Shown in pieces: positions 9,143-41,845 of a stretch of 64,000 bases of DNA. This DNA comes from Gloeophyllum trabeum ATCC 11539 (Eukaryota > Basidiomycota > Agaricomycetes > Gloeophyllales > Gloeophyllaceae). Location: the NCBI RefSeq assembly GCF_000344685.1, contig NW_006920413.1, positions 2,567,482 through 2,631,481 of the forward strand. Reading direction: 5' to 3'. The position numbers were made by a program, and so were the translations under genes. The notes beneath the pieces were generated by a model, which did not search any database, was not told the DNA's origin, and was given only the letters and a program-made list of their open reading frames with translations. Within the stretch, counting starts at the first letter, position 1. Each line of letters opens with the position of its first letter.

Positions 9143-10243
9143 GCTGCCTGCGGATAGATCCCTAGCGCTTATGTTGTGGTATACTTCCATTGCCAAGCAA
9201 ACTCTGAACTATATACATAGCGGACAGGTGTTCAGACGTCATATCCAGATAGTTCTGTAGCTTCCAATGTCTCAGGGATAAGGCGGACACAAGGTGGGTC
9301 GAGGCTTGCAAAGACTATATGGAGAGACCGGGCGAAAGGAAAGGGCGACGTCAAGTGCTGGGGCGTATAGCAGCAGGGATTTATATAGCTACAGCCCGCG
9401 AAATAGACACGCTGCGTTCGATAGCTCTTCGATGACCCACGTCTTCAGACTTGAGTGGATGAACATTTCGGAGACAGCAGCCAATTTTTTACGTTCTCTT
9501 CTCAGGCATGAGCTCAGCATCGTTCAAGGTAGAGGCATATTCCAATATCCAGACTGTATCGAAGTTGAGTATGTTGAACTTCGAAAAGGACGAATCGATG
9601 ATGCTGCCGTGCCAAGTCTCCAGAGGATGGAAAATCGTAGGAAATAGTGAGGAAAATCACGATTGGTTCCCTCGGCCACGTGAACGGACAGTGTGATTGC
9701 CATATCCGTCCTATGTCGCTCTCAGAGAAAGTTAGAGATCTGACATACGCTTCCTGTGAGTGTCACGATTTATCGATGCATCCCTCGGGACTCTGAAGGA
9801 GCTAAGTTCCCATGAACAGAAGAATTACTTTGGGTCGCAGGCTGCGTACCTTTTCAGTCAAATCCACGGCCCTACATGAACCCCAACCTCGGACCGAGCT
9901 GCGCAAAGGGTCCACGAACGCCTGCAACGTGTCTCCCAACAGGTGCAGCACAAGACCCTAGTGCCATCCCGCACGAAACGATCTCTCTTCGGGAAGCTCT
10001 TCAGCATTTCAGACTGGGCGTATCACAGTCTCGCCGAACACGTGTATTCCTCGAGCCGCTGCCGATCCTTCATTACTTATGTTCCGCGTCCGTGCTTCAC
10101 TTGGGTCTTTATGCTGCTTTCTGACGTACGCTTGCTTGCAGTCAGCTGGCGGCATATGCAAGGGTACTGCTTGAACCCTTCTCTGCCCAGGTCGTTCGCT
10201 GGTACTATTCAGTCTACTTGAATTGCCCTGGAACACTGGAATC
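9143..10243. other. Intergenic region upstream of the GX3-repeat gene
   Basis: About 1.1 kb without a supported gene. It separates the divergent SDR copy 2 and the coiled-coil gene, so it should carry both promoters. Small open frames at 9294-9696 and 9876-10221 have no recognisable features. Confidence 0.5.
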
Positions 10244-16044: not shown

Positions 16045-19000
16045 ATGGAGAACACACAGGCAGCGCAGTCTGCTAAGGCCGATGAGGAGCACGCCCGCCG
16101 CGTCAGGCGCGCGAACCTGCGCAAGTTGAACACGGAGCGGGCGGGGCAAGGTGCGCAGTGCAGCGTCCCAGGTTATTGACTTCACCTTACTCATATTGTT
16201 TTTACTATATGCTACGTTAACGACAATCAGAGCCCTCGAAGGCGCTCGACTCGTCGCTGAAGCGGCACACCGCGCTAATCAAGCGCATCCGCCAGTCCGT
16301 CGGCGCGGACAACCGCGAGCAGATCCTGAAAGACATCGACGCGCTCTCGCTGGAGAAGTACGTCGAGGAGATCGTCGGCGCAGTGGTCGAGGGGACCGCG
16401 CGGTGCAAGACGGAGAAGGACGTTTGGAGTGCCGTGGAGGTGCGTCCCCACACCGTCTGCCAGCCCCCTCCCTGCAAACTCATCCACACTTCTGTGCAGG
16501 TGATATCCGCCCTGCACCGCCGCTTCCCGAAGACCTTCACCCCCTCGCTGATCGAGCTCCTCGCGCAGGCGCTGACGCCGCCCAACCGCGCCGCCCTCGC
16601 CTCCCTCCCCGTCGAGCAGCGCGAGAAGGAGGACGCCACGCGCGTCGCGCGGCAGCGCCCCGTGCTGCGCGTGTGCGCCGAGCTTGCATTGGTCGGGATC
16701 ATCAGGGACGCGCCCGGGCGCAGCGGCGCGGAGTGGGTGATGAAGACGCTCAAGGAGCTGGTGCGTCTGTCCCGTCTCATGTATGCGCTGTGTGGAGGGT
16801 GATGGTGTGGTGTGGTGTGGTGGCGCAGCTGAGCAACGACCCGACGCTCTCCTCCCTCCCGCTGCTCTCGACGTTCCTTAAGTCCTACTCGCGCCCGTAC
16901 CTCGGCATCGTCGCGCCGGCGGCCCACGCGAAGCAGATCTCGGCGGCATCCGAGCCCGGGACGCTCTCCGGACAGGCGCAGAACGGGTCTGGTGCGGGTA
17001 TGGAGACGGGGGCGGTGGACGAGGACGAGGAGCTCGTGGAGAAGGACATCCGGGACCGCTTCAAGCGGATGTGCGAGATGTACTTCGAGACCGTCGCAAA
17101 GAAGCTCGTGATCGAGCACAAGGTGTGCATATACGCGTCTTTCTTTCGAGGGACGGGAGGTGACGGTAGGGGTCTTGTATGCGCAGCGGCTGCAAGAGCA
17201 GGATCGCAAGAACCACGAGGCGTACATCCGCTCAGGGGAGATATTCGAGGACCGCCAGCAGGCGTACGAGAAGATGACGAAGAGCTACGAGAAGCTGCTC
17301 GCGAGCTGCCAGACGTAAGCTATCCTCGTCCGACCCGTTCTCCCTCTCACTGACCGTCTTCCCTGAACCAAGCCTGTCCGAGCTCTTGTACATGCCCATG
17401 CCGGAGCTACCCACCGTCGCGCACAAGTCCGAGTCGATCCTCATCGGCGCGGGCACGAACGGGCTCGGCGCGGACGACGACGAAGGCCTGATTACTGCGG
17501 GCGGGAAGTGGGAGGACGAGGAGGAGCGCCAGTTCTTTGAGGATATTCTTGATTTGAAGGATATGGTGCCAAGGAGCGTGCTGGGAATCGAGGAGGAGAA
17601 GGAGGCGGGGGAGGACGAGGAGGAAAGGAGGAGAGAGCGGGAGCGGGAGGAGGAGGAGGTCAGGAGGCTGGAGCGCGAGATTGAGGGCTTGGGGAGCGGG
17701 GAGGGGGTTAATGGGGTAGCGCAGGAGGATGCGGGGGATATTGATGCGGAGGATGAGGGAGATGACGAGTGAGTGGTTCCCATTGCTTGCCACTGCTGTG
17801 ATTACGTTCTGACCGTGCGTGTTCAGTGCGCCGACACCGGTTCCCGGATCGCCGCGGGCGGGTGCAGCCACCCCTCTCCCGGACGGCACGGAGGCCCAGG
17901 GTCCGTCCCAGCTGCTCACTGCGCTTCTCGCTCGTCTCCCGGATTGCACCAATCGTGCATTGATCGATCAAGCTGCAGTTGATTTTGCCTTCCTCAATTC
18001 TAAAGCGGCGAGGAAGAGGCTTGTGAAGGTGCGTGCGTTCAGTCTCGTCTCACCCTGTCCTAAGTCGTTGACTGTTGTCTGTAGTTCCTGTCGCAGGTAC
18101 CGAAGAATCGGACGGAACTGTTACCTCATTATTCCAGGCTTGTAGCTACTCTGAACAGATATATGCCTGATGTTGGCACGGAACTTGTCGCGATCGTGAG
18201 TACTGCGGTTCCCTCTATCCACTTGTCCGTAGTGTAACGAGCCCGTGACCAGCTGGACGAAGAGTTCCGTTATTTGCAGAGGAAGAAGAAAGTTGTGAAG
18301 GAGTTGCACGACGTGAGGGTCAAGGTACGGCGCGCGCCTTCCACCTAGTATGACCCTACTCAGCTGCCGATGCGAAGAACATTACCTTCATATCCAACCT
18401 CACCAAGTTCCGCGTCGTCCCGACGCATTTGATTCTGCATATATTCAAAGTGTGCCTGGACGACTTCTCGGGCACGAATGTGGACAATATAGCCATGTTG
18501 CTGGAGGGCTGTGGTAGGTTCCTGCTGAGGAGCGATGAGACGAAGGAGAGGTTTGCAAAGATGGTGAGGCATATGTTCTGTGGAACTCGTGGTGGGGAAC
18601 CTGACTGAGACGCTCGTGTTGTGCCCTGCAGCTAGAGCTTATGAAGAGGAAGCAGAGCCTGCAGCATTTCGACCAGCGACAGCAGCTGATGCTCGAGAAT
18701 GCTTATTATCAGGTAATCCAGGCAATGTCAGGTGACCCTACCCCGCTGATCGTTGCATAATTTAGTGCAATCCCCCCGAGAGAGCTCCTCGTCAAGAAAA
18801 GGAGCGAACGCCCATGGAGCTCTTCATCCGGCATCTCATCTATGACGTCCTATCTAAGAAGTCTATCGACAAGGTGTTGAAGCTCATCCGCAAGCTAGAC
18901 TGGGACGATGCCGCTGTACGCCGCTCGCTGCACAAGGTCTTCACGAAGCCATGGAAGATCAAGTACAGCAATATCGGGCTGCTCGCGATGTTGACGTACG

Positions 19001-20518
19001 ACTTGCAGCGGTATCATCCCGAGTTCAGCGTGGCTGTTGTTGACCAGGTGCTCGAAGATATTCGCAGAGGCCTCGAACAGAACGTGTACAGCACCAACCA
19101 GAGGAGGGTGGCGACAATGAGGTACCTTGGGGAGCTGTATATCTATAGGTTGCTCAACTCTTCCATTATCTTTGATACATTCTGGTCCCTGGTTACCTTT
19201 GGCCATCGTACGTCCATCTCTGTATCGTCATGCCTCCTTTTTGCCTGACCGCTCTTCGTAGCCGAGGGTCGACCTTTACCCCGTCAGCCTTGTCCTCTGG
19301 ACATGCCGGACGATTTCTTCCGCATCCGTCTTGTCTGCACTTTGCTGGACACCTGCGGGATGTGCTTTGACCGGGGGTCGCAGAAGAGGAAGTTGGACAA
19401 TTTCTTGACGTTCTTCCAGGTGATTGGCTGCTTTGGAACCTGGATTGTGGAGGAACTAATCAATCTCGCTAGTATTACATGTTGTGCAAAGAGCCTCTGC
19501 CCATGGACGTAGAGTTCATGGTCTCAGATTCCATCGAGGTAAGCGTGCCGGCATATCCGCTGTGCTGGGTACACTGATGTTCCTCTTTAGGCTGTTAGAC
19601 CGGAGTTGAAGCTGTATAGGAACGTGGAGCAGGCTGCCATAGCGGTGGATGAAATGTTCAGTGCTGCTTTCCAGGAGGCAGGCTGTATGTTAACACCTCT
19701 GGGCCCATGGCATGATCTGCAGCTCACACCTCTCGTGTATAGTGACCACCAGTGCCGGGGATGATAGTGGGGAAGAAAGCGGGGATGAGGACGACCGGCC
19801 AGAACAACAGGAGGATGACGGTGATGAAGAACAGGGCAATCCGGATTCCCCTGTGAGTTGCAAAAGATCCTCACCTCGACCTGTCTAATATTGCCTCCCG
19901 CAGGTTGATGACCGTGCCCCATCACCGGAGACAGTCTTGGTCGGCTCGATATCCCAGGAGCACGTTGGGCCGACGGAAGACGAGGACGCGGAGTTTGCCA
20001 AAGAGCTCGCAAAGATGCTGGTCGAATCGTCGGCCGAGTCTAAGAAGGTCGATCGCAGGACTGCGCAAGCTCTTTGGGATTCGTCTATCCTTCCCCCCGG
20101 TGCCAGGCGCAGGCGTGGTGACGAGGGCGAGGGCGATGCGTCTGACCTCGACGACAATGGCGTGATGAAGTTCACTCTCGTGACGAAGAGGGGTAACAAG
20201 CCTCAGGTGATTACAATGCCTGCGAACAGGGAGGCGCTGCTCTGACATGCTTCATAGACGCGTTCCCTCGCCGTCCCGGCCGAGAGTGCTCTCGCCGTGC
20301 AGACGCGCACTGCCCAAATGCAAGACAAAGTCGAGCAGCAACACCTCAAGCGCCTCGTCTTGGACTATGAACAGCGTGAAGAAGCCGAGGAGCTCAAAGG
20401 TGCGTCTCCCATACCGAATGAGTCGCGTTCAACCCTGAATCAAAGGTCATCCCAGCGCTGGAAACTCGCACCCGCGGAGGGGCGATCAAGATACGGATCG
20501 CTGGTTAACAAGCGCGTG
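16045..20518 (+). CDS. UPF2: Nonsense-mediated mRNA decay factor UPF2 (NMD2)
   Basis: UPF2 is the cytoplasmic bridge between UPF1 and UPF3 in nonsense-mediated decay. The gene has many small exons and encodes roughly 1,100 residues. The start MENTQAAQSAKADEEH is followed by an intron and a first MIF4G repeat (SLKRHTALIKRIRQS through the VISALHRRFP helix to LSNDPTLSSLPLL). A Glu-rich linker (about 17,500-17,770) leads to MIF4G 2 (ALLARLPDCTNRALIDQAAV; KNITFISNLTKFRVVP) and MIF4G 3 (YDVLSKKSIDKVLKLIRKLD; MRYLGELYIYRLLNSS). An acidic run follows, then the C-terminal UPF1-binding segment with DRRTAQALWDSSILPPG. The last exon ends IKIRIAG before the stop at 20516-20518. Intron positions near the 3' end are inferred from reading-frame continuity. 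This is a conserved core gene. Confidence 0.93.
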
Positions 20519-27471: not shown

Positions 27472-28082
27472 GGTGGGTTGGACTGGATCACGGAGGGAGG
27501 GTGCGGAGGTTATGTAGAAGGCGTGCTGCGTTTCGGGTGTATTTCATTCGCTTATACTAGTAACATATGAACTCTCCCGAATCTGTTAGACTCGCGCATT
27601 CGAAAGTACGGTGTCAAGGCACTATCACAGCCAGCCTGGGCTACAAACTACCATATTTCGCTCGTAGTAGCTCACACCACATCGGTCGCCGGCGCAGGCT
27701 CACGGAATGCGTCTCTTCGTCCTATTCAATCGCGACACCTTCCGTGCTCGGGCCGTACAGCAGCCTGGTGGATACAAGTCAGCAGCTCGTCGTGCAGGGT
27801 GAGTTCAGGGTTCAAACGTTTATAGGTACGCCGAAGTCCCTTGGGAGTTTTGGTTGTCGAGGGAAATCCTAGGCCAGGTGAGAGCCCGTCATTACATCGC
27901 CTGTTATGCCCTGGTTATTTACGGCTGGAACGCATGACGCGATTCTTCTTTACAGGACAGGCATACATAACGGTGTTTGACAGGAGCAAACTGTGCTTGA
28001 GAGTACCACATAGGTGCGTCATCGACTACATATTGCAAGAGCTAGCACAACTAATCCCAAGGACTGTATACAGCAGCCCACC
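27472..28082. other. Spacer between P450 and IGPS-PRAI genes
   Basis: About 610 bp with no supported gene. No glutamine amidotransferase exon can be read here, although that domain would be expected at this place if the downstream gene were a full trifunctional tryptophan enzyme. Confidence 0.55.
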
Positions 28083-29639
28083 ATGTCCACTGAAACCAAG
28101 TCGAACGGGGTGCCCAGCATCCTACAGAAGATCTACGCCCAGCGCCAGCTCGACGTCGAAAAGGCCAAGTCCACGCCGGGGACCACCCCCTCCGACCTCG
28201 ACACCCTCCTCTCCCTGCACCTCGCCCCGCCGCTCATCTCCGTCGTCGACCGCCTCAAATCCGGGCCCAAGCCCGGCCTGATGGCGGAGATCAAGCGCGC
28301 GAGCCCGTCCAAGGGCGACATCGCGCTCACCGCCAACGCCGCGCGCCAGGCGCTCACCTACGCGCTGGGCGGCGCGTCCGTCATCTCCGTGCTCACCGAG
28401 CCGACGTGGTTCAAGGGCTCGCTGCTCGACATGCGCCTCGCGCGCGACGCCGTCGGCGCGCTGCCCAACCGCCCGGCCATCCTGCGCAAGGAGTTTATAT
28501 TCGACGAGTACCAGATCGCCGAGGCGCGCCTGCACGGCGCGGACACCGTCCTCCTGATCGTCGCGATGCTCCCCGTGCCGCGCCTCCAAGCCCTCTACGC
28601 CTACTCGGTGAGCCTCGGCATGGAGCCCCTCGTCGAGGTGAACAACGCCGCGGAGATGCACAGCGCGCTCGCGCTCGGCGCGAAGATCGTCGGCGTGAAC
28701 AACCGCAACCTGCACGACTTCAACGTCGACATGGGCACGACCTCGCGGCTCGCGGACATGGTCGCCGGGCGGGACGTCGTCCTCTGCGCGCTCAGCGGCA
28801 TCTCGAGCGCAGCAGATGTGGAGAGGTACACCGCCGAGGGCGTCGGCGCGGTGCTCGTCGGCGAGTCGCTCATGCGCGCGAAGGACGCGGGCGCGTTCAT
28901 CCGCGAGCTGCTCGGGCTGCCCGGCACACGCGAGGCGGCGACGCTCAAGCCGCGGGCGCCCCTCGGCAAGGTCGACGGCGTGCGGACGGCGGAGGAGGCG
29001 CTGCGCCTCGCGGCGGAGGGCGCGGGCTTCATCGGCGTGTACCTCTCCGAGTCCCACCCGCAGCACGTATCCCCGAAGGCCGCCGCGCAGATCGCGCTCG
29101 CGCTGCGCCGCCTGCGCGTGGAGAAGAGCGCGTCGTCGTCGTCCGCGGCGATATCCACGGAGACGCCGAACGAGTCGTGGTTCCACGCGCACGCGCGGCG
29201 CACCGCCGCGCTGCTCAACAGCACGTCCGCGCCGCTGCTCGTGGGCGTGTTCACGGGCGCGCACCCGTCGCTCGACGCGCTCATCGAGGCGGCGCACGCC
29301 GCGCAGGTGGACGCGGTGCAGCTGCCCGCGGGCGCGCCGCTGCACTGGGCGGCGCACGTCCCGTGCCTCGTGGTGCGCGCCGTGCGCGCGGAGGCGCCCG
29401 CGCGCGAGCTCGCGGAGGCGCAGACGCCGGGGTACCACCATTTCGTGCAGGTTGAGTTTGCGCGGGACGGGGGGGTGCACGCGCAGGCGGCCGTCGGGCA
29501 GTGGACGGTGCCGGTTATTCTGGGCACCGCGGGTGTGTCGAGTGAGGAGGAGATCGCGGGCCTGACGGAGGGTGTGCGGCCCTGGGCGGTTTGTATGAGC
29601 ATCGAGGGGTACCGGAGTAGTGCTGGTGTGCAGGCGTGA
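28083..29639 (+). CDS. Indole-3-glycerol phosphate synthase fused to a degenerate PRA isomerase domain
   Basis: The N-terminal domain (about residues 10-270) is an indole-3-glycerol phosphate synthase. It has EIKRASPSKG, ILRKEFIFDEYQI, GVNNRNL and LCALSGISS, the expected catalytic and phosphate-binding segments. It would convert CdRP to indole glycerol phosphate in tryptophan synthesis. The C-terminal domain (about 290-518) aligns in outline with phosphoribosylanthranilate isomerase: VSPKAAAQIA, PLLVGVF and VDAVQL are recognisable. Its active-site motif, normally KICG or KVCG, reads KVDG. VQLHG has become VQLPAG, and the Asp-bearing LLDS-type strand reads FVQVEF. Fungal TRP1 is usually a glutaminase-IGPS-PRAI trifunctional protein; this one starts at the IGPS domain. 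It is a single exon starting MSTETKSNG. It is probably a paralog, or a gene whose PRAI half is structural only. Confidence 0.85.
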   Translation: MSTETKSNGVPSILQKIYAQRQLDVEKAKSTPGTTPSDLDTLLSLHLAPPLISVVDRLKSGPKPGLMAEIKRASPSKGDIALTANAARQALTYALGGASVISVLTEPTWFKGSLLDMRLARDAVGALPNRPAILRKEFIFDEYQIAEARLHGADTVLLIVAMLPVPRLQALYAYSVSLGMEPLVEVNNAAEMHSALALGAKIVGVNNRNLHDFNVDMGTTSRLADMVAGRDVVLCALSGISSAADVERYTAEGVGAVLVGESLMRAKDAGAFIRELLGLPGTREAATLKPRAPLGKVDGVRTAEEALRLAAEGAGFIGVYLSESHPQHVSPKAAAQIALALRRLRVEKSASSSSAAISTETPNESWFHAHARRTAALLNSTSAPLLVGVFTGAHPSLDALIEAAHAAQVDAVQLPAGAPLHWAAHVPCLVVRAVRAEAPARELAEAQTPGYHHFVQVEFARDGGVHAQAAVGQWTVPVILGTAGVSSEEEIAGLTEGVRPWAVCMSIEGYRSSAGVQA

Positions 29640-30196: not shown

Positions 30197-30402
30197 TCAG
30201 TCGGACGCCGGCCCGGCGACCTGGTGGACGTGGTCTTCGAAGAGGAGGCCCTCGCCGCGCGCTGATTAAAGACAGGGTGGTCATCCACCGCGCGCGGAAA
30301 TATCAGCTGATGCAGCCTACCTTGTAGTTGCGCTGGAGAGGGGGCGGCGGCGACGGACATGACGAGCGCGAGGAGGACGGCGCAGAGGGTGGTGGCGCGC
30401 AT
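30197..30402 (-). CDS. Tiny secreted peptide precursor 1 (candidate RiPP precursor)
   Basis: Two exons, 30321-30402 and 30197-30261, join in phase 1 to a 48-residue protein. Residues 1-20 (MRATTLCAVLLALVMSVAAA) form a clear signal peptide. A short linker PSPAQLQ is followed across the splice by ARGEGLLFEDHVHQ and a small tail ending GPASD. The core LFEDHVHQ matches the cores of the genes at 37940 and 40250 and of two orphan exons. Exon 1 is 82 bases, exactly as in the 40250 gene, and the intron is in the same place and phase. There is no Cys and no C-terminal CaaX, so it is neither a cysteine-rich effector nor a basidiomycete pheromone. A TATA-like box lies about 70 bp upstream. I infer a precursor of a modified peptide because a UstYa-type oxidase lies 4 kb away; the motif itself is not one I know. 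Confidence 0.72.
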
Positions 30403-31154
30403 GATGATGAGTCTTGGAGGGTATTGCTGCTGATTGGAATGGAGATGCAGGGAACGCTGGTGGGCGGCGGGTTATATAGCCTCTGCACCGAAAATATTTG
30501 CTGTGGCTATCTGCGCGGCGGTGCGGCGCAGTGGAGCAATGCAGCTCTCAATCACGAATCAAGAAACAGGATCAGAGGGAGTGAATTGGGCGAGAGAGAA
30601 AGAGGCAGGTCGGACAAAGGGGGCGTCGTATTTTTGAAACATTCTGTGAATATGGCAACAGAAGCATTGCAGAAGAATCAGAAGGGCGCCGGGCGAAGGA
30701 TGGATGGATGGAGGTGTTACAGGGACCGAGCGGGAGAAGGATTCGTGCGTACACGGCGGTGATGCCATGATGGACGTGATTGCAGCCTGTCAGTAAGTGC
30801 GGGTCCGCTTCGCCGCCTTTCGGTACCGCCTGGCCATACTTACAGGCGTTTCGTATTGCTGTACTGCATTCGACTTGCCTGCATTTTATGCATTGGATTA
30901 TCATGGTAGTGTTTCGAATCAGATATTCCCTAGTGCGGGAACCGAATCGCCGCGGTTCTCGAACTTTATGCATGCAGATCACGACTCATATGCACTCGCG
31001 CTAACGCTAACGCTTGTCAATAGATAACCTTCCTCGCGCAATCATCCGAGGCGATATCGACTCCATGGGCGCATATAGCAAGAGATGCAACATATAGCAC
31101 TACAGTACCATCGCCCGCGTGCCTTCAAAACAGATAGCGCGTGCGAATCCAACA
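30403..31154. other. Promoter side of peptide gene 1
   Basis: No gene is supported in this 750 bp. It contains the TATA-like element of peptide gene 1. Confidence 0.45.
30472..30478 (-). promoter_or_regulatory. TATA-like box of peptide gene 1
   Basis: TATATAA on the minus strand, about 70 bp upstream of the ATG at 30402. Confidence 0.5.
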
Positions 31155-31427
31155 TCAACCTGGAAGCAGCCCGTCATACACGTTCGGCCGTGGGAGGTCC
31201 CTCGTCTCCCGCATATCGATCCGCGCGCGCACGGCGGCGGAGACGAGCCCGGCGTACTTGGTCGTCGCCGCGAGGCAGAGGAGGTTCACGAGCAGGATAG
31301 CGGCGAGGAGGAGCGAGGTGAGGAGCGAGCGGCGGGAGCTGATGGAGGGATGGGGAGGGGGCGGGGGATAGGTGTCCTTGCTGTCGTCAGAGTCTTGGGT
31401 GAGCGGGAGGTAGTGCGAGGATGGCAT
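31155..31427 (-). CDS. Small single-pass membrane protein with a DxRxTRxLPRPNxYxGL tail
   Basis: An intact 90-residue frame. The N-terminal 30 residues are polar and proline-rich (TYPPPPPHP). A strong membrane helix follows (LLTSLLLAAILLVNLLCLAA, about residues 34-54). The outer tail is short: RIDMRETRDLPRPNVYDGL. The layout of an N-terminal cytosolic segment, one helix and a tail with PRPxxYxGL recalls the anchor and linker of basidiomycete UstYa-type (DUF3328) proteins, but the catalytic HxxHC part is missing and no downstream exon supplying it is visible. It could be a stand-alone partner of the oxidase at 34131, a truncated relative, or unrelated. It lies between peptide gene 1 and the oxidase gene. 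Confidence 0.6.
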   Translation of the reverse strand: MPSSHYLPLTQDSDDSKDTYPPPPPHPSISSRRSLLTSLLLAAILLVNLLCLAATTKYAGLVSAAVRARIDMRETRDLPRPNVYDGLLPG

Positions 31428-32020
31428 GGCTAGTTGGCTAAGTAGGCTTTAGTTGGTTTGGATGTTACGATTGCTATACGTGAGGCTTACCTATGAACCT
31501 CAGGAGTCGTCGCGGTGAAGATGTTATGGTTCGCTGGAAAGCATGCAGGTAATCAACCTGGAGGCCTGCACCTCGGTTTGATCTCGCTTAGATCGAGCCT
31601 AAACACGGGATTATGCTCCCTGGTGGCGCTACAGATATCTGTCAAAGGCAGTGATCCTGACAGCTGCGGAGGCTGTCGGATCATGGATGGACATTATTGA
31701 CGCTCAGCGCTCATGAGAGTCCAGAGATTCGGGGGCATTGCAATCTCGGGGGCGTAATGCACGATATACGAATCCGGGCGCGGATGCTAGCTGAAGCGCT
31801 TGCCGTAATGAGGCTACCATCCCAGTCGCAATCGCAGCTCAATACGTACAATGCAACATGGAATGCATGGTTTATTGCAGTCTTGGGTGCGCGGACAACA
31901 CGTATACTCAGATGCATCCACCTCAGTGACATAGAACAACAAGGATAACAATCGCAACAAGAGGCTCATCTCCCTGGATTGGCGCAGCTTCAAACATAGA
32001 AAGGGTGCGAGAATAGACAA
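31428..32020. other. Intergenic region in the peptide island
   Basis: No gene is supported. Short overlapping frames on the two strands lack recognisable features. Confidence 0.45.
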
Positions 32021-33301
32021 TTACGCCCCAGCGTTGATACCCCTTCCAGCGAGAGAGGCAATCGCGTGATTCAACACTTCAGCTGCGCCTCCATCACACG
32101 CCAATACGTCTGTCGTCTCCAGTTCCCGATCCAGCTTGTCAAGATAATCTGCCGCGCCGGAAAGGTTGGCCACCTTCGCACAGGCTGCGTGCAATGCTAG
32201 GAGCTGTGGGGAAGGGAGAGGGAGACGCTCGGGATCAGGAGTGGTGAACATCACCCGTTCCCTCATCATGGGAGTAAAACCTGACCTCACCGCTGTGACA
32301 CGATAACAGTTCGCCATATCCTGCTCCATCTACTTTCAGAAGAAGTGGTGGTTCACCAACGCTTCGAAGCACTCACCGTTTCCTCCAACCACAGCTGCAA
32401 CCGGTCAAACCTATTGTGGACGTTGTGTTCTAGTGTCATCACGTTGTAGAGCGAGTGAACCTTCGGACCGTTCAATTTGTCGACGTCATAGCCGAAACGC
32501 GATAGGACAGTTAAAACTGATGCCACATAATCTTTCTGAAGTAGGCTGTGTCAGTGAAGAACTTGTATGGGGAGTACTGTGCGGATATCATACTTTGCTC
32601 GAAGCTTCTTGAGAGTTGTCAGTATTAACGTTGAAATACGTGGACTCAGGCACGATATGAGCGCATTCCGTATCGACGAGCCAGACTTGGGGATCCGCAA
32701 GCTCGTCATTGAGCATATCCTGCGCCAGAGTATCATACGCTCCGGTCACAGCGCATCTGTAGCCGTCCCGTAAGAGTGCCTGCAAGACGAGTGCATGAGC
32801 ATGTCGAACCGATTCATAGATCGTGGGACACAACTTGTGCCTTGGCGGTGCTATGATTTTTTGGTGCCTCCTTGATTGAGGCCTTCGGCAATAATCGCTG
32901 CTGGTCAAAGGATGGGCGGCTGAGGTGGTCGGAGGTGAAAGGGGTCCTGCCTTGATATTTGCGAACTGGGGGGTAAATGAGTGCAGGGTCGCTGCGTAAG
33001 ACGCGACGTACTCACATGCACGTATGAAGTAGTTCAAAAAGGCCTGTCCCAGATTATGTAGAGCGTCATAATCCTCGCTGCAGGAGTGAATCTCCTTTAC
33101 GATCTCCGAGAGGGAACCATGTGAAGATGGATGAAGAAGCAGGTAGCCTAAGATTCGAGCAGAAATAATGCGCTCCGTGTCTTGTTCGGTGGAAACGAAC
33201 TCCTCAAAGCGCAGGCAAATATCATATGCACTGACCGCGTTTTCACGGTGTAGTAGTGCGGCGACGTCGACTTGACGCGGCAGTGGTTGAGCGTGATACA
33301 T
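32021..33301 (-). CDS. HNH-nuclease-domain protein of basidiomycete type
   Basis: Three exons on the minus strand (32594-33301, 32377-32535, 32021-32329) join in phase to 391 residues. The first two thirds are helical with no clear domain. Near residue 190 comes the HNH-like module: a DGYRCAVTGAYD strand pair, a spacer, and TECAHIVPES. After the first splice comes YNVMTLEHNVHNRFDRLQLW, the second half with its Asn and His residues. Proteins with this layout are frequent in mushroom genomes and their role is unknown; they are not shown to be mobile-element endonucleases. It sits inside the peptide island, but nothing in it suggests peptide modification, so its presence may be accidental. Confidence 0.75.
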
Positions 33302-34130
33302 GATGTAGAAACCGGGCTAGTGTTGTTGGCAAAATGTTGCCAGGCAAAAGTCCCAATTTTGCCACCTAGCTAGGCTCCTGATCAGCCTGTCGTTCCAATT
33401 GAGTTTGTAGTCCACTACAAACGCGCTTCGACGCGGGTTTGACTTAGAAACTGCTGCGCACATTTGCCTCGGCCTGCTTGTCGCCGCAAATCTCTCTGAT
33501 TCTCTGCGTCTCTGATCATAATGTCTAACAGACATCGGATGCCGACACATGGGACCGGACAGCTTTGTATCACGAATACGTACGGACAAGCATTACGGAT
33601 CACTTGCTATCCCCAATATTGGCAGGGAGTTTCGGATTGCGTTGTAATTCACATTGAAAGGGACTACGTCTCCCCTCCGAGTTCGTATCCCGTTCGACAA
33701 TTTGATTCCCTCTCCTTGCCACATCCGGGCGTAGCTACTACTACATGTACCTTGAAATCTCCATCTTACATCTCCATGCTTATCTGCCTGCGGTCAGCCG
33801 AAAGTCGGAAACGGCGATGATGATGCATCATGCAATGCAGCACTGAGATCTAGAAATGATCATCACAAACTGCACAGCCGCCGAAACTGCAACATTGCAC
33901 TTCCTTGCTCTTCGCAATAGGGCAAGTACAGCAGCCAAGTCCAGAATCTTGAATACAGACTAGACGCTGCCGTCCGCGGGCGCGACATCAGCCCGTAAGT
34001 TCACGCCGATCTTGTAGTCTCGAGGCTCACAGTGACACACAGCTCTCCTTTCTGCGGAAGTTACTACAGCCCGATCCAGCTGGCGTTTATTTATCACTGA
34101 GCGCTAGCGCTGAGTATTGAGTCCCCAGGT
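33302..34130. other. Divergent promoter region of HNH and UstYa-type genes
   Basis: No coding feature is supported. It contains a 12-bp perfect palindrome close to the UstYa-type start, listed separately, and an A/T-rich box (TTTATTTAT) just before it. Confidence 0.5.
34100..34111. promoter_or_regulatory. Perfect 12-bp palindrome AGCGCTAGCGCT
   Basis: It lies 20-31 bp upstream of the UstYa-type start, directly after an A/T-rich TTTATTTAT stretch. Such symmetry fits binding of a dimeric regulator, but I see no second copy in the island. Confidence 0.3.
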
Positions 34131-34828
34131 GTGGTCATGGCTGGTTCAAGCTACAACCAGTGGCCAAACGCCGTCCTCGCCACCCTGCTCGCTGTCACCG
34201 CACTCAACGTCGGCTTCACGTGGTACAACCTCTCGCAGCTCTCGCAGCTCCTACCTCCCAAGAGGAAATACAGTACGCCTCCTTCCTTCCCCGTCCCCTC
34301 CTTGCCTACGAGACCACTCACCCACACACAGGCTACATCGGGCACGACCACCCCGACCAGCTGCCCATCGACCTCCCGGAGGTCGGGCTCGTCCTCACCC
34401 CCGACGCCGAGCACTTCGACCTGTGGAACGACACCGAATGGGGCGCGCTCTTCCCCACCTCCGGCTTCGTCCCGCTCCCCGCGCCCCAGAACCAGACGAC
34501 CTTCCTCATCTCCATGACCCACCAGCTGCACTGCCTCGACGTCATCCGCGTCGGCTTCCTCACGAACCGCACGGGCGCGGCGGAGCATGTCCAGCACTGC
34601 CTGCGCTACCTCCGCCAGGCGGTCCTGTGCTACGCGGACACGACGCTCGAGGAGGACGAGCCCGCGTGGTTCCCCGAGGAGCGGCGGTGGCGGCATGGAG
34701 GCAGTGGCGTGGGCAGTGTGCATCGGTGCAGGGACTGGACAGTCGTTAATAGGTATTTGAGAGAGCATTTGCCTCCCCCGGTGGATTGGCCGCCGCCAGA
34801 GGAGGAGGGGGAGGGGGTGAGTGCATGA
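34131..34828 (+). CDS. UstYa-type (DUF3328) peptide-modifying oxidase
   Basis: In ascomycetes, UstYa proteins oxidise and macrocyclise ribosomal peptides in the secretory pathway (ustiloxin, phomopsin and asperipin types). Two exons, 34131-34272 and 34332-34828, join in phase to 212 residues. After a short N-terminus, AVLATLLAVTALNVGFTWY is a single membrane anchor. The lumenal part carries the two family-defining HxxHC motifs: HQLHC in MTHQLHCLDVIR and HVQHC in EHVQHCLRYLRQ. It also has HPDQLPIDLPE upstream and a RCRDWTVVNRYL segment near the end. All expected His and Cys residues are present. A second in-frame ATG at 34137 may be the real start. Three tiny secreted peptide genes and a small membrane protein flank it within 6 kb, which is the reason for the RiPP proposal. 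Its product is not known. Confidence 0.85.
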
Positions 34829-37800
34829 GAGGGTGCGTGGGTAACGGTGTGGTGTACTGAGTGTATGGGTAACTTGTTGCCGATATATGTGCTTTATTCA
34901 GAGGGCTGTAAGCTACTTTCGGTGTATAACGCATTCGCCCACGGAGCTCGAGCTGGTTGCCGTTAATCGAATGTTCAATATTCGTCGGTCGTATATTCTA
35001 TTCGCCTCTCCGCTTATGCATCTCCCTGTCCCTGCCCCTGTTCTGATTCCATGTTGGCTTCCCCTGCGGATTTCATTCCCCTGCGAGGCTTCAATCTCAC
35101 CATAATAATATGCGACTGGCATATATACAGAGGTAAAGCGCGGATCCGGAGAAGTCGTGGGCCGGACGATGATACGTGCATTTAGACTATGACATACAGT
35201 ATTCACCCGTGGAAGGGACCCTTTCGCGGGATTCTAACCCAGGAAAACCTCCTCTCAATCGTACTTTCGCGCCGTGCAGCACCAACGGAGTCGAGGTAAG
35301 TTCCGATGATGTTCATCTCAGAAGTGTTTCGCTCAGAGGAAAGCCAGCTCAAAGTGATCCTGAATCATCCATGGACAAAGATCCAGCGCCGTCCTAATGC
35401 GCGTCATGGAGGCACCGCGTGAGCTCGATCCTGGAATAAGGCACGGAGGCAGGGCCAACAAGAGCAGACGATTTGCTTGATAGGTATCACCACTTTCGGT
35501 ATCGGTCACAGTGCCTCTGTCTGGACAAATTTTGGAGCAGACACCGCGATGGAATTCGAGTGGCTAGATTCATTTCGTACCTCTGCCGGTTGTTCGAGCT
35601 TGTGATCCACCCCTCCTGCGTTGCACCTGGCAGATCCTTGAGCTTGAGACGTGACTTGTACGAGAGCTCCCAAGGCACGAAGAATGCTGGGAGCAAACAT
35701 AGGCGGAACCGCACAGATTCCCGTACGCGTAGAGCGGTAGCGCCGCTGGGTGCAAACCAGTCAAATAGGTGATTCTTCAATCTACTCGCCTTCGTTTACG
35801 ACGACTCATCATGGTGCCAGGATCGACGGTGCTCAGCCGCAAATCCGAGACGCACGAAGCCGGAACATCAGTAGTCGCGTGCATGGTTCCGACTCTTGCA
35901 ATCCGCCAGAAAATCTTAGCGGGAAGCAAAGGGAAATCAACGTCAAGAGTATTTGGGTCTGCTCGCTCTCACCTCGGTTGAGACGAGAGGTATCATGATC
36001 CATGATCCATGGATCAACTCCGCGCAAACAAAGGCACGAAACAACCCTAGGCCATCGCACTCAGGCTGATTTATCCCGCATTACACGGCGTTTATTGCTC
36101 CAGGATAAGCATTGTAATCAAGTGGCTGCCAGTACCGCGGCCTCGCTGGACGTGTCGTGATTCACCCGCTGGATTATACCAGAAGCTGGAGACACTTTCA
36201 GCAGACGTGTAGCTCGGATGTTCTCTGGTGACTGTCCCACTACCTACTCGCCCAACAATGATGAGTCAAGTCTTCCGAGACCGCAGGTAGTGATCCATCA
36301 TTACAGAAGCCTGTGGTGGAGGACGCCGGCCTTGCACCGTCGACTGTAGCGTATTTGGCTATATGGATACTGGTGCCAACGGGGATCCATCCATCTACGG
36401 GTCCTATCTTCTGAACAAGTTGGGCATGGGAGCATTGATCCCTGTTTAAGAGCGGAGAAAGCGACGGGGAATGAACTGCATCATGGGTGTTACAGCTCCT
36501 CTGGCAGCATAGTCAGTTCGTTGAATCTTCGTTCGAGCGGTTAATCCATTATCATTTGGCCAGGGGTTCGAGCTGCGCATGATACGGTAAGCTGATGTGA
36601 GCAAAACTGTTATATGATAGTATCAGCCAAATAACTAGGACGTGCAAGGGTGAATTTTCCCAATAGCAACTTATACGTGCGTCATCAGTGATAATATTGC
36701 CTTCACCCATGATGCGCTTACCTGTATAGGCTGTCAAAATGCGCAGGCCGAGAAATACATAGACCTACGTTCTCACCCCGTGCATCGCTCTTACGCCACA
36801 AGTGAAGTAAGTATCAGCAAGGATCATCAAAGAGCCGCTGGACTACGCAGGAGTTCCGAAAGCTTAGATCGCTGATATCGCCTAGCAAGGCCGTAGATAT
36901 GCTAGTGAAAGAATGAAGAGCGGGGACACAACCGAGAAGCATACATTGCGAGACAAGAGTCAGTCGTACCGGTACGAATCCCTTCCAGCGTAAAAAAGAA
37001 ACAGCCAGGAGTCGCTAGCATAACATTCCCATGCTCAGCCAAGTCTCGGAAGCTAGACATTGATAAATGCATAGAAGCATATCATCGCTGGATATCAACA
37101 AAGAAGCGTTCCATGAAAGATATCATGATCCACGAAACGCGCTCACCGACTACATAGAAGTGGGGATGTCATTGGATCCGCGATGACCTGCGAAGATGAT
37201 CCGTAATCGTCATTATGTGAAGGTTAGACGATGGAGACGATGGTCAACGGGACCGTGATACTTCTGAACAAGTTCGCGAAACCCACCGCCGCCAATTTAC
37301 GATATGTTTGGGAGCGGTAGAACGCTGCATATCCTCAATCCCTCCGCGGGATTAGCGATCGCGCCGAGGCTTTAACTTCAATAGGCGAGCGTCTCACCAG
37401 GTACATCTGCCACACAATGATGCATTGATGATGGAGGGCAGCTGGGATTTGATATGGCATTTGGGCATGGTTGTTCACCGACAGGGACGCCATGGACCCA
37501 GTTTATCTTCGATAATGTCATTCTTGTGATGTGCATTGCGAAGTGGATGCTCTAAATACGCATCTCTGCCTTGCTTGCCAACTCGGCATAGCCTTAGGCC
37601 TCAGCAGGGTGCGTAAGTCATCAGCGCAGTCCGAACCCCGTACGTGTGTTTGATAGTGCTGTGACTGGTACTAATCGTGTTAACAAAGCAGACAGGGTAG
37701 CACATACCGATACGTACAGTAATATAATCAACAGTTGGGACAGCACGGCATCACCACGGCGCACGAGCGCCATCATCTCATCACCAAGGCCGCGGGTGCG

Positions 37801-37939
37801 ATGCGGTGCTGCCGCACTGTATAACTTGCCATTCACATGACAGCTCAAGACCTCCGCCAGCTTCTTATAGCTGAAGCAAGGTAAGAGATCTGTCAATCAC
37901 TTATCCCCCAAGTCCGAGTCTCAGGTCAAGGCAATCAAG
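34829..37939. other. 3.1-kb gene-free stretch in the island
   Basis: No gene is supported. Open frames are short and the base composition is closer to even than in the flanking genes. Near 35996-36015 a short ATGATCC unit is repeated. I see no transposon ends or core-exon copies here. Confidence 0.5.
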
Positions 37940-38139
37940 ATGCGCAGTACACTGCTATTTTTGATCTTTCTCGCCTTCGTATCCTCGGTGCTCGCTACCC
38001 AACCAGCTGCATCAGAGAAGCCCGGTCGTAAGCGCATCATACCTCTCCTTTCGTCATGCCTGACTCTTGTGGGCGCACGGCTCGAACAGGTGGCAAACTA
38101 TTTGAGGCACATGTCCACCAAGAAGTAGGTCTGGATTGA
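37940..38139 (+). CDS. Tiny secreted peptide precursor 2 (candidate RiPP precursor)
   Basis: Two exons, 37940-38027 and 38090-38139, join in phase 1 to 45 residues. Residues 1-20 (MRSTLLFLIFLAFVSSVLAT) are a signal peptide. A short propeptide QPAASEKPGR leads directly to the core GKLFEAHVHQ and the tail EVGLD. I prefer the donor GTAAGC at 38028 over GTCGTA three bases earlier; the two differ by one residue. Reading through the intron gives a frame without the core, so splicing is needed. The core matches peptide genes 1 and 3 at L-F-E-x-H-V-H-Q. The Arg just before GKLFE is a possible processing site. Intron and 3' sequence are also similar to the orphan copy at 39247, which shows common descent. 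Confidence 0.72.
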
Positions 38140-39119
38140 GCTCCGTGAGTCAAGCATCAGTTCGTATACGCATTTGGTCTCATTAACGTGCGCTTACCGG
38201 AAGGATATGCACCTGCTGTCTCCGTGATGTGGCGTGCGTTTAAGCCACACAGCGGGTTATATATTGGAAGTCCACGAGGATGCTATTGGCTTCCACGGTG
38301 ATGTCATTTCCAGCTCTGGTCCCATCTATGAGGGCGGAAGTCAAAGAACAGCGTTCTGCGTCGTTTGCGTTGGCATGACATCAGTATTCGCAAGTTCGCC
38401 AGCTCCTGGGACTTCCGACTATGATCAAATTATTCAGTATGTATCTGTTGTGCTGAGATATAATCTCAGACACAGTTTTGGGTAAGACAATGTTTAGCAC
38501 CGGCCGCTGAGTTCGTATCTGCCTTGAGGGTTGCCGTAACTCAGTATTCATACGCTGAGAGACGCCGGAGGACTTCGTTGTCCATCGTCATCTGTCAGGG
38601 GTTCGTGGACGAGCACGCTGCAGTCATACCTCGCCAAATGCCTATAGACACACCGTATTAACGTTGTCGCGACCGGGGCTCCACAGCAATCGGCTACGAG
38701 GTGCTCAGAGACGCCTAAATCTCGCCCATCGACGGCGCAGTGCGGGAGCACCCTATGGTACATACTGTATGTGTCAGAGTGCACCCATATCCTAGCACGA
38801 TCTAGTGTGGCAGACCCTATTAGGGGTAAAGGCGGAAGTCCTGAGGTTACCTCGTTAGCTCTAAGTTCACACAGTTCACCCGGGCCAGCAAATACTGGTC
38901 ACAGAGTATGTTCAGGCTAGATCGTAGGTCCATGGTTAGTAACACTAAAGTCTCAGGAGCTGCTGGGCTTACAAACTGTGAGGTTGTGTTAACGGAAACG
39001 ACCTGGAACGTGACTCTTAGGATGGTTGCTTGGATAGCACAGAGCACTCCGACAAGTCCTTGCTCAAACGCATCTGATTTCTTGCGTGCATATAGCTCGC
39101 AATAATGCACAGAAAGTAG
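38140..39119. other. Spacer after peptide gene 2
   Basis: No complete gene is seen. It would need to hold a signal-peptide exon for the orphan core exons downstream, but I cannot find one. Confidence 0.45.
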
Positions 39120-39199
39120 GACCTCTCTGGGAGGACCATGTCCACCAAGAACTAGGTCCAGAGAAACTCGTTAGTGCGTGCATTAGCCGTACTTCTTGA
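39120..39199 (+). pseudogene. Orphan core exon A of the peptide family
   Basis: After a good 3' splice site (AAAGTAG) the frame reads PLWEDHVHQELGPEKL and ends at a TGA at 39197-39199. WEDHVHQ corresponds to FEDHVHQ of peptide gene 1. No signal-peptide exon is visible upstream, so it is a remnant, an alternative second exon, or an internal exon joined to the next copy. A possible donor (CTC|GTTAGT) lies at 39168-39170. Confidence 0.5.
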
Positions 39200-39246
39200 T
39201 GATGCCTCCCTTGACTTCGTCGTGCATGTAGCTCGCGAGCGGACAG

Positions 39247-39293
39247 GCGGACTATTCGAAGCGCATGTTCATCAAGATATGGGATCTGAATAA
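39247..39293 (+). pseudogene. Orphan core exon B of the peptide family
   Basis: After the 3' splice site GGACAG the frame reads GLFEAHVHQDMGSE and stops at 39291-39293. The preceding 90 bases and the sequence after the stop resemble the intron and 3' flank of peptide gene 2. No start exon is visible. It may be spliced from exon A, giving a two-core product, or be a broken duplicate. Confidence 0.5.
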
Positions 39294-40249
39294 GCTCGGT
39301 AGACAGCTGTGAGGCTCCGTGTAGGCGAGATCCGACTGGGATTCCCTAATCTGTTGGTTGACGAGGAAGTCCAGGCTCTATAGTTGACTTTGTGAGTCGC
39401 GGACGTTCATGACCCGGACAGAGCATACCTAGCTGTCGATCGTCTGTAAGAAAGATGGACATGTTCACTACCACCATTTTCACAGGCTCCAGCCGCTCGG
39501 TCGCGTGATATCGCGTTGTATATGTGCGACCTTCGAAGAAGCCCAGCAGCGTGTGAGGTGTAACGATCACTTCGGAAAACAACGACGATAATGACAAGTT
39601 GCCACCTCGGTCATCGGGACGAGCATCCAACACCGATTTTATAATTGCTCACCCACCTTGAACTGTAATTATCTCCCAGCCACTATCCCCTTTCTTCGCG
39701 TCCAAATTGGGCCGTCCTGTCCGAGCCCATTCTGCTCCGAACTCTAAGCGCCGCGTACCTGGTTTATTGAGCGCGCCGAACAGATCCATCCATCTTTTGT
39801 TAGACATCAAATCTGCCACCTGTCTGCTTATGACCCACTGCTACGAGTATAGTTGACTTGCCGTCAACGCCTCCCTGCAGAATTGATATGCGGCTAAAAA
39901 TACGGGTCTCAATGAGCACTCTTAAGCAAAGACTGGCCAACAATGCTCGCGTTGAAGGTCGGACAGCTGATAGAGGATTGGATCCAACTCACTCACGCCC
40001 TAATACCAAATACTCGACCGAAGACGTCGCGAATGACATTAGCGTCAAAACACTTGCCAGACCCGTGCTTGAGCGGCAATCCTATCCTACTGACGGGCGC
40101 AAGCATCACACCGGCCTGCGATGAACAAGAACTAAATATAGTTCAGCTTGTCAGCCACAGTATAAAGGTAGAACCCCGCCTTACCTGCCTACCTGAGCCC
40201 TCTCGTCCCGTCTGCGAGCCAGGAAAAATATACCTCCTAACTCCCAACT
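39294..40249. other. Promoter side of peptide gene 3
   Basis: No gene is supported in about 950 bp. It contains the TATA-like box of peptide gene 3 at 40161. Confidence 0.45.
40161..40167 (+). promoter_or_regulatory. TATA box of peptide gene 3
   Basis: TATAAAG, 89 bp upstream of the ATG at 40250. Confidence 0.5.
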
Positions 40250-40491
40250 ATGCGAACCATCTTTGCGCTCTTCACGCTCGTGGTGTCAGTTATGTCAGCC
40301 GTAGCGGTACCTGCACCCGTACAACCCCGAGGTAAGCAAACTGCAGTTCCCGCCCTGATCCCTCGCGCTGAACGCTGACACTGGCGTCACGCGCAGCTGA
40401 CAAGGGCGTCCTCTTCGAGGAGCATGTACACCAGAGTATCCGAAGCCCCGGAGACGACGGTACGCCATCCGCGCAAGAAGTATCCCTGTAA
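40250..40491 (+). CDS. Tiny secreted peptide precursor 3 (candidate RiPP precursor)
   Basis: Two exons, 40250-40331 and 40397-40491, join in phase 1 to 58 residues. MRTIFALFTLVVSVMSAVAV is a signal peptide. The linker PAPVQPR crosses the splice to ADKGVLFEEHVHQ, followed by a longer tail (SIRSPGDDG, ending AQEVSL). The first exon has the same length as that of peptide gene 1 on the opposite strand 10 kb away. The Arg two to four residues before the core recurs in all three precursors. There is no dibasic Kex2 site and only one core, unlike ustiloxin or epichloecyclin precursors, which carry several. It is the member closest to BOS1, where the island ends. Confidence 0.72.
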
Positions 40492-40864: not shown

Positions 40865-41845
40865 TCACCCCAAATACCGCCAAATGAGATAGAAACAAAA
40901 GAACGTGAATATCGCACCCGCGAAGAATATGTACATATCCTGCGTACTGCAAACCAATGAGCCAATCAGTCACATTCTCCACTTCACCGATAAAAGAACC
41001 TGAACAGCGGCGAACGGCACGCACCTGCGCCGCTCAATCCAGCCGATGACATCCCTACTCATTCCGAGAGTGTTCGCCGCATCTAGCAGCCGGCGCTGTG
41101 TGCCCTTGAGCACGTTGCGCTGGTCGACGAGGTTGTCGAGCACCTCGCGGCCCTGCGCGAGGAACTCGTCCAGCCGCGCCTCCGTGTTCTGGATGAACGT
41201 GTGTTCGCGGAGCGCGTGGTCTTCCCGAAGCGTAGAGTTTACCAGGGGCGTGGATGCGCGGAAGGGAGAGGAAGAGGAGTCAGAGTCGGGTGGGGGGATG
41301 GTGGGCGCAAAGCGCCGTCGTGTGTCGGAGGCGCTGGGGGAGAGGGGGCCGGCTGAGGATCCGAAGAGGTCGTTGCGTTTCTGGATGCAGAGTTGAATTC
41401 ATTCAACGCTACAGGAAGTCATCCAGATCAAGACACGTACTGATGACTCCGCCTGCGTCTTCAACTGCTCAAACTGCGTCCTCAACTCCGCATAATCGCT
41501 CCGGAACTTCTGCACCCGCCTGCCCCGCCATCAGCCCTCACACCACACCATACAACACAACACTTACATCTGGGCCTTCTCCTGCTTCGCCTTGATAATC
41601 TCCCTACGCGCCATCGAGTCGTAGTCCTCGATCGTCCGGCTCATAGCAGCCAGCGACGCCGATATCTGCCCTGGCGGGTCGATCAGTGAGACGAGACGCG
41701 ACAGACAATACATATCCCGAGCAGAAGCACCAAAGAGCTGTTACGCACCTAATAACGACGCAGACGAGTCCCCATTCCGTAGCCTTTCGAGGTCGGCCTG
41801 GATAGAATTCGTCTGCCGTACGCCCAGAGTGTATAGCGAGTTCAT
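40865..41845 (-). CDS. BOS1: ER-Golgi v-SNARE BOS1 (GOSR2/membrin type)
   Basis: A Qb-SNARE for ER-to-Golgi vesicle fusion. The start MNSLYTLGVRQTNSIQADLE is at 41845. Exon 1 is 41749-41845 and exon 2 is 41568-41670, followed by further exons joined in phase. The N-terminal helix region includes LAAMSRTIEDYDSMARREII. The SNARE helix is unmistakable: RLDEFLAQGREVLDNLVDQR, then NVLKGTQRRLLDAANTLGMS and RDVIGWIERR. The last exon encodes STQDMYIFFAGAIFTFFCFY and the end of the tail anchor, LIWRYLG. The glutamine of the zero layer is present in this helix. This is a housekeeping gene and marks the right border of the accessory island. The plus-strand frame of 116 residues over it is a shadow. Confidence 0.9.

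What the first reader, a model, noticed from the sequence alone, without database searches (positions are those of the whole stretch)
30197..40491. Candidate basidiomycete RiPP locus: UstYa-type oxidase among tiny secreted LFExHVHQ peptides
Seen: a UstYa-type protein with two HxxHC motifs and one anchor (34131-34828) lies between three signal-peptide genes (30197, 37940, 40250) that share the core L-F-E-x-H-V-H-Q, the same phase-1 intron and a similar short propeptide. A small membrane protein at 31155 lies inside the same stretch. Known: UstYa homologs crosslink ribosomal peptides in ascomycete dikaritin pathways (ustiloxin, phomopsin, asperipin), whose precursors carry a signal peptide and Kex2-type cut sites. 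Inference: a mushroom peptide pathway with single-core precursors encoded by several small genes, unlike the multi-core precursors of ascomycetes. The motif is not one I know from described RiPPs.
Basis: partly seen in the sequence, partly recalled or inferred. Interest (0 to 1): 0.93.

Follow-up and report, generated by a model that had tools for sequence, protein, structure and literature searches.

The report
Wood-rot fungus peptide and oxidase cluster
In a wood-decay fungus, one gene for a peptide-modifying oxidase sits among several tiny genes for secreted peptides that share the sequence LFExHVHQ, which suggests, but does not prove, that such fungi make a modified peptide of a kind not described before.

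Summary
The window is Gloeophyllum trabeum ATCC 11539. The DNA pattern for LFExHVHQ occurs 4 times in the 35.5 Mb genome, all in this window, against 0.013 expected; a fifth core, LWEDHVHQ, lies among them. Two of the five were not reported: they sit on neighbouring exons joined by a plausible 58-nt phase-1 intron, giving a possible two-core module. So 'single-core' is incomplete, and P1, P2 and P5 have no dibasic Kex2 site. The UstYa belongs to a clade with members in 47 named species including G. trabeum (my count), separate from the genome's 12 other UstYa hits. Most likely reading: a Tyr-free UstY-type RiPP pathway with one core per exon (0.55). Whether the enzyme acts on these peptides, what it does to them, and whether the precursors exist in other fungi are untested: no other fungal genome could be searched.

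The parts
30197..30402 (-). P1 precursor gene, 48 aa, two exons (30402-30321, 30261-30197), core LFEDHVHQ
   Evidence: public model GLOTRDRAFT_127971 covers it but leaves the intron unspliced
31155..31427 (-). 90-aa single-span membrane protein; part in the pathway unproven
   Evidence: no Pfam match; no convincing paralogue in the genome
34137..34828 (+). UstYa/DUF3328 oxidase, 210 aa, intron 34273-34331, HQLHC and HVQHC motifs, N-terminal membrane helix (residues 9-38 in the model)
37940..38139 (+). P2 precursor gene, 45 aa, exons 37940-38027 and 38090-38139, core LFEAHVHQ; no public model found here
39096..39173 (+). P3 core exon, 78 nt, phase 1 at both ends, core LWEDHVHQ (39125-39148)
   Evidence: inferred exon, no transcript data
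39174..39231 (+). inferred 58-nt phase-1 intron joining P3 and P4 in frame
   Evidence: such an intron in 0.41% of 20,000 shuffled linkers; criteria set after the intron had been seen
39232..39293 (+). P4 terminal core exon, core LFEAHVHQ (39252-39275), stop after DMGSE
   Evidence: inferred exon, no transcript data
40250..40491 (+). P5 precursor gene, 58 aa, exons 40250-40331 and 40397-40491, core LFEEHVHQ; C-terminus uncertain (public model ends differently)

Best explanation
This is a small UstY-type RiPP pathway. The P peptides enter the secretory route through their signal peptides. In the lumen the membrane-anchored UstYa, expected to be a binuclear-copper oxidase like its relative CctR, oxidises the conserved G-x-L-[F/W]-E-x-H-V-H-Q core, most likely by linking the aromatic residue (Phe or Trp) to a neighbouring side chain. 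The core is freed by cleavage at a non-dibasic site, perhaps after a single Arg, and secreted. Cores are supplied one per exon: P1, P2 and P5 singly, P3-P4 possibly as a pair. Shown: enzyme family and intact motif, gene structures by sequence, core conservation, exclusive co-location in this genome. Inferred: enzyme-substrate pairing, reaction, cleavage, secretion, use of the P3-P4 exons.
For: All 5 cores found in the genome lie within 5.7 kb of the ends of this UstYa gene, on both sides; about 0.3% of the genome lies within 6.6 kb of one of the 8 UstYa loci. The intact genes keep the core while their codons differ: P1-P5, whose homology is shown by a whole-gene alignment (score 45, maximum of 200 shuffles 24), differ in the core outside the x codon by 3 changes, all synonymous (null 0.004). 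UstYa motif positions H112, C113, H131, H134 and C135 are the same in 101 of 101 aligned rows and H109 in 100 of 101, with one gap. Family mechanism: CctR is a copper-dependent DUF3328 enzyme anchored in organelle membranes, its C-terminal domain proposed to lie in the lumen (PMC12435403, parts 1 and 2 of 3 read), the compartment that signal-peptide precursors pass through. A Tyr-free cross-link has precedent in victorin (Phe side chain to Leu; PMC9233826, passages read).
Against: No transcript, mass or genetic data. No peptidase, tyrosinase, methyltransferase or transporter matched among 38 of the 64 ORFs listed, the small membrane ORF and the spliced UstYa; 26 listed ORFs were not scanned and a single-exon scan can miss genes. 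No dibasic site. P2 does not align with P1 or P5 beyond shuffles (17 and 21 against shuffle maxima of 21 and 22), so its kinship rests on core, intron phase and layout. The synonymous-only pattern for P2-P4 (4 of 4, null 0.0004) and P1-P4 (5 of 5, null 3e-05) is biased, since P4 was found by the amino-acid pattern itself. A survey found 103 of 1680 basidiomycete KEPs with a DUF3328 gene nearby and suggested that cyclisation might hardly occur in Basidiomycota or that its factor differs there (PMC7329392 section 7). The precursors were not seen in any other species: one search returned 2 proteins, both from this genome; a broader one did not even recover those two. P3-P4 have no convincing signal-peptide exon of their own.
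Confidence: 0.55

Rival explanations
1. Secreted signalling or defence peptides that are never modified; the UstYa is a neighbour by chance or acts on something else.
For: Signal peptide plus a short conserved core is enough for a hormone or antimicrobial; no other tailoring gene was seen close by. UstYa relatives are widespread and may have another substrate.
Against: About 0.3% of the genome lies as close to a UstYa locus, and cores lie on both sides of the gene. Enzyme and peptides share the secretory compartment by prediction.
Confidence: 0.25
2. The HVH peptides bind copper and hand it to the UstYa, or scavenge copper outside the cell, instead of being its substrate.
For: His-Val-His is the same in all 5 cores; the CctR authors suppose an accessory protein that delivers Cu(I) or electrons (PMC12435403 part 2).
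Against: The conserved L, [F/W] and E are not obviously needed for copper binding; several gene copies are many for a chaperone; no binding data.
Confidence: 0.08
3. The locus is partly or largely a relic: P3 and P4 are exon remnants and the pathway is decaying in G. trabeum.
For: P3 has a changed core and neither P3 nor P4 has a convincing leader exon of its own.
Against: P1, P2, P5 and the UstYa are intact; the P3-P4 intron is unlikely by chance (0.41% of shuffles).
Confidence: 0.12

Closest known systems
Dikaritins (ustiloxin, phomopsin, asperipin-2a) of ascomycetes
   Same: Signal-peptide precursors beside a DUF3328/UstYa gene; repeated short cores within one locus
   Different: No dibasic Kex2 sites in P1, P2, P5; no Tyr in the core; cores spread over separate exons and genes; no tyrosinase, methyltransferase or peptidase seen; host is a basidiomycete
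Victorin (Cochliobolus victoriae)
   Same: Fungal RiPP whose cross-link uses Phe and Leu, not Tyr (PMC9233826 passages)
   Different: Multi-core precursor, likely Kex2-processed (same passage); other core sequence
CctR (cyclochlorotine hydroxylase)
   Same: DUF3328 protein with one membrane helix and the HxxHC(x)nHxxHC motif (PMC12435403)
   Different: Acts on a non-ribosomal peptide
Kex2-processed repeat proteins (KEPs) of Basidiomycota
   Same: Secreted peptide precursors, some near DUF3328 genes
   Different: KEPs need 3 or more tandem repeats between dibasic sites (PMC7329392 Methods); these have one or two cores and P1, P2, P5 have no dibasic site
Burpitides (plant BURP-domain cyclases)
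   Same: Copper-dependent side-chain cross-linking of ribosomal peptides (PMC12186524, abstract start and passages)
   Different: Another enzyme family and host

Membership tests
UstYa / DUF3328 (PF11807) | Pfam match above the curated cut-off | tested here: met
   73.2 bits against 25
UstYa / DUF3328 (PF11807) | Two HxxHC motifs | tested here: met
   HQLHC at residues 109-113 and HVQHC at 131-135
UstYa / DUF3328 (PF11807) | One N-terminal membrane helix and a lumenal domain | tested here: met
   Helix 9-38 in the AlphaFold2 model, mean pLDDT 84.5 overall and 95-98 per block over residues 11-40; the lumenal side is inferred from CctR
UstYa / DUF3328 (PF11807) | Copper-dependent oxidation | not testable with these tools
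   Needs biochemistry
Dikaritin-type RiPP | DUF3328 gene close to the precursor genes | tested here: met
   All 5 cores within 5.7 kb of the gene
Dikaritin-type RiPP | Precursor with signal peptide | tested here: met
   P1, P2, P5 by a hydropathy heuristic only; P3-P4 show none of their own
Dikaritin-type RiPP | Several repeated cores in one precursor | tested here: inconclusive
   P1, P2, P5 have one core each; P3-P4 could give two
Dikaritin-type RiPP | Kex2 dibasic sites (KR, RR, KK, RK) around the cores | tested here: not met
   None in P1, P2, P5 (sequences) nor in the P3-P4 reading
Dikaritin-type RiPP | Tyr in the core as cross-link site | tested here: not met
   No Tyr in any of the 5 cores; 65.6% of repeats of DUF3328-accompanied KEPs have Tyr, so it is common but not required (PMC7329392 section 7)
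Dikaritin-type RiPP | Cross-linked core peptide | not testable with these tools
   Needs mass spectrometry
KEP | At least 3 tandem repeats between dibasic sites | tested here: not met
Basidiomycete lipopeptide mating pheromone | C-terminal CaaX box (recalled) | tested here: not met
   C-termini ASD, GLD, VSL (IKP in the public P5 model), GSE

The most novel reading that the evidence does not exclude
A distinct class of mushroom RiPP: Tyr-free, His-Val-His peptides cross-linked by a stand-alone UstYa that is conserved through Agaricomycetes, with cores on symmetric phase-1 exons, so that one leader exon (37940-38027) can be spliced to its own core or, by skipping, to the P3-P4 core pair. Core choice would then be made by splicing, and the product would be a conserved signal or copper-binding peptide instead of a lineage-specific toxin.
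Probability: 0.15. Interest if true: 0.9.

Novelty: new variant of a known kind. Interest (0 to 1): 0.7.

Why it matters
UstYa genes are not rare in mushrooms (16 in Pleurotus, PMC8893723 passage; at least 13 here), yet a survey of repeat precursors found only 103 of 1680 basidiomycete KEPs beside them (PMC7329392 section 7). Tiny one-core-per-exon precursors would escape searches that look for repeats or rely on annotation: of the three intact genes here, one is annotated with its core, one without it, and one was not found. The locus gives a concrete substrate candidate and a search design for a UstYa clade seen in 47 named species.

Tried and rejected
Degenerate-core protein search (A4): no candidate, but it also missed P0001 and P0002, so it says nothing about other fungi. 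UstYa in viral and prokaryotic contigs: 108 and 41 pattern matches, none a relative, as expected for a fungal gene. PDB by sequence: 0 matches; by fold with Foldseek: 51 matches, 0 at E 0.001 or better; pdb_via was not run. Shared promoter motif: one 8-mer and its reverse complement in 3 of 5 upstream regions, fewer than the null mean of 5.6: rejected. Similar peptide families at the 7 other UstYa loci: none seen in a self-comparison at 8 of 10 identity (rows cut there for three regions are listed); this would miss single, unduplicated genes. A two-mismatch core search gave 135 hits against 99 for its control, listed only in part, so it does not separate further members. P2 against P1 and P5 at DNA level: not above shuffles. 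Mating pheromone: rejected for lack of CaaX. The motif is in no paper of the held PMC library under six spellings, which did not include LWEDHVHQ; preprints and most subscription journals are not held. The paper on a copper-dependent DUF3328 macrocyclase is not held; I know only its title, from a reference list.
Full report
What was checked. All four gene models are present as described. P1 is 30197-30402 on the minus strand, P2 is 37940-38139 and P5 is 40250-40491 on the plus strand; each has one phase-1 intron (59, 62, 65 nt) and carries the core in exon 2. The UstYa is 34137-34828 with a 59-nt phase-1 intron and 210 residues; it matches PF11807 at 73.2 bits against a cut-off of 25 and equals the public protein GLOTRDRAFT_137892.

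Origin. A search with the precursor family returned two proteins among 8 candidates, both named Gloeophyllum trabeum ATCC 11539 and on a contig of 2,803,634 bp, the length of the window's contig C4. G. trabeum belongs to the Gloeophyllales, Agaricomycetes (that it is a brown-rot fungus is recalled). The public model of P5 has the same first intron and core but another C-terminus; that of P1 reads through the intron and so lacks the core; P2 was not among the hits.

Is it more than chance? The degenerate DNA pattern for LFExHVHQ hits 4 times in 35.5 Mb, all in this window, with 0 for the reversed control; 0.013 are expected from base composition. The pattern for ExHVHQ hits 17 times (control 5), 5 in the window; none of the other 12 has L-F or L-W before the E, and 5 of those 12 are one identical 18-mer. 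The fifth window core is LWEDHVHQ at 39125. With two mismatches the search is uninformative: 135 hits against 99 for the control.

How the copies relate. P1 and P5 align over promoter, exons and intron (score 45, maximum of 200 shuffles 24). P2 does not align with either beyond shuffles (17 and 21, shuffle maxima 21 and 22), so its kinship rests on the core, the intron phase and the gene layout. Core codons outside the x position differ by 3 synonymous changes and no others between P1 and P5 (null 0.004). For P4 the matching figures (4 of 4 against P2, 5 of 5 against P1) are biased, because P4 was found through the amino-acid pattern.

The cores at 39125 (P3) and 39252 (P4) are 103 nt apart and in different frames. 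A GTGCGT...TGTAG intron of 58 nt (39174-39231) joins them in frame at phase 1, the phase of the introns in the intact genes. An intron with a GTRNGT donor, a YTRAY branch site and an in-frame, stop-free join arises in 0.41% of 20,000 shuffled linkers, 1.1% with a looser donor; I set these criteria after seeing the intron. A 73-nt intron with a later acceptor would also fit. The P3 exon is 78 nt with phase 1 at both ends, behind an acceptor whose surroundings resemble those of P4 (17 against a shuffle mean of 7.7; 1 in 1000 shuffles as high). P3 has Trp for Phe. No good signal-peptide exon lies between P2 and P3: with ten common donor types the only candidate was the P2 leader exon, and with any GT donor the others were weak (best hydropathy 2.2). 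So P3-P4 either uses the P2 leader across an intron of about 1.07 kb, long beside the 58-65 nt introns here, or has lost its leader. Transcripts would decide.

The enzyme. 101 proteins, the window's own included, matched at E 0.001 or better; below the self-match, bits run from 311 down to 107 and then drop to 45 for one Mycena protein. By my count the rows above that gap carry 47 named species, G. trabeum included, from Gloeophyllales, Boletales, Polyporales, Russulales and Phallomycetidae among others (orders recalled), besides unnamed sequences. In a quick tree with the 12 other UstYa hits of this genome, the 101 and the 12 are divided by one branch (SH-aLRT 98; several long branches), and the window protein groups with Heliocybe and Neolentinus (99), as the species would. 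The clade thus looks vertically inherited. Motif residues H112, C113, H131, H134 and C135 are the same in 101 of 101 rows, H109 in 100 with one gap; a fixed-spacing pattern finds both motifs in 98 of 101. The AlphaFold2 model (mean pLDDT 84.5; an earlier one from 30 rows reached 73.5) has one N-terminal helix and two motif helices; no solved structure resembles it significantly. For the family, CctR has been shown to be a copper-dependent, membrane-associated homodimer with two copper ions per monomer; alanine mutants of the motif lost activity (PMC12435403, parts 1 and 2 of 3 read).

Surroundings. The cluster lies between an IGPS (trpC-like) gene (28014-29636) and a V-SNARE gene (40973-41398). 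Further out are a Zn2Cys6-type regulator (1727-4289), two short-chain dehydrogenases (7051-7899 and 8236-9208), MIF4G (18766-19245) and Med12 (61730-62095); the regulator and dehydrogenases are 20 kb or more from P1 with other genes between, so I do not count them in. I gave Pfam 38 of the 64 ORFs listed, the small membrane ORF and the spliced UstYa: no peptidase, tyrosinase, methyltransferase or transporter matched. This scan saw single-exon ORFs only and 26 listed ORFs were left out. An HNH-like ORF (32591-33316, below cut-off) and the 90-aa membrane protein lie inside; nothing shows that either takes part.

Interpretation. Peptides and enzyme should meet in the secretory lumen, the core is the most conserved part of the intact genes, and nothing like it was found elsewhere in the genome. 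That favours a UstY-type RiPP pathway. It differs from dikaritins in lacking dibasic sites and Tyr and in spreading its cores over genes and exons. Trp for Phe in P3 hints that an aromatic side chain is needed; a Phe-Leu cross-link is reported for victorin (PMC9233826, passages read). The reaction type is a guess: DUF3328 proteins are also implicated in hydroxylation and halogenation (PMC12435403). Rivals are unmodified peptides with the UstYa as bystander (0.25), a copper-carrying role (0.08), and a decaying locus (0.12, raised from 0.10 because of the biased P4 test).

Limits. The decisive comparison, whether the precursors accompany the related UstYa in other mushrooms, could not be made: other fungal genomes are not searchable here, and annotated-protein searches see few genes of this size. 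Statements on the literature cover only the held PMC library.

Noticed in passing
G000 C6:576013/578935 (L016-L017), C5:695286/696770 (L020-L021), C7:393343/395064 (L022-L023), C14:701070/702594 (L024-L025): Four head-to-head UstYa gene pairs, each with one member holding both HxxHC motifs and one with degenerate motifs (HQLRC, HQLAC, HQLYC, HQFKC). Perhaps a catalytic subunit paired with an inactive one, unlike the stand-alone window gene.
   Followed up: partly
G000 C6:217196 (L026-L027) and C4:2241387 (L018-L019): A lone UstYa with degenerate motifs and a lone one with intact motifs; no partner in the family search.
   Followed up: no
window 31155-31427 (-): 90-aa membrane protein ending in LPRPNVYDGLLPG, no known family; might be a partner of the UstYa or unrelated.
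   Followed up: partly
   Followed up: no
one search list: The UstYa clade is nearly absent from Agaricales among the hits (one Cristinia protein and a distant Mycena one), although that order is heavily sequenced; order names and sequencing depth are recalled.
   Followed up: no
G000 C1:159554, C7:715787, C7:716883, C10:40809, C15:397261: The 18-mer GAACAACATGTACATCAA recurs with much the same flanking reading, probably a dispersed repeat.
   Followed up: no
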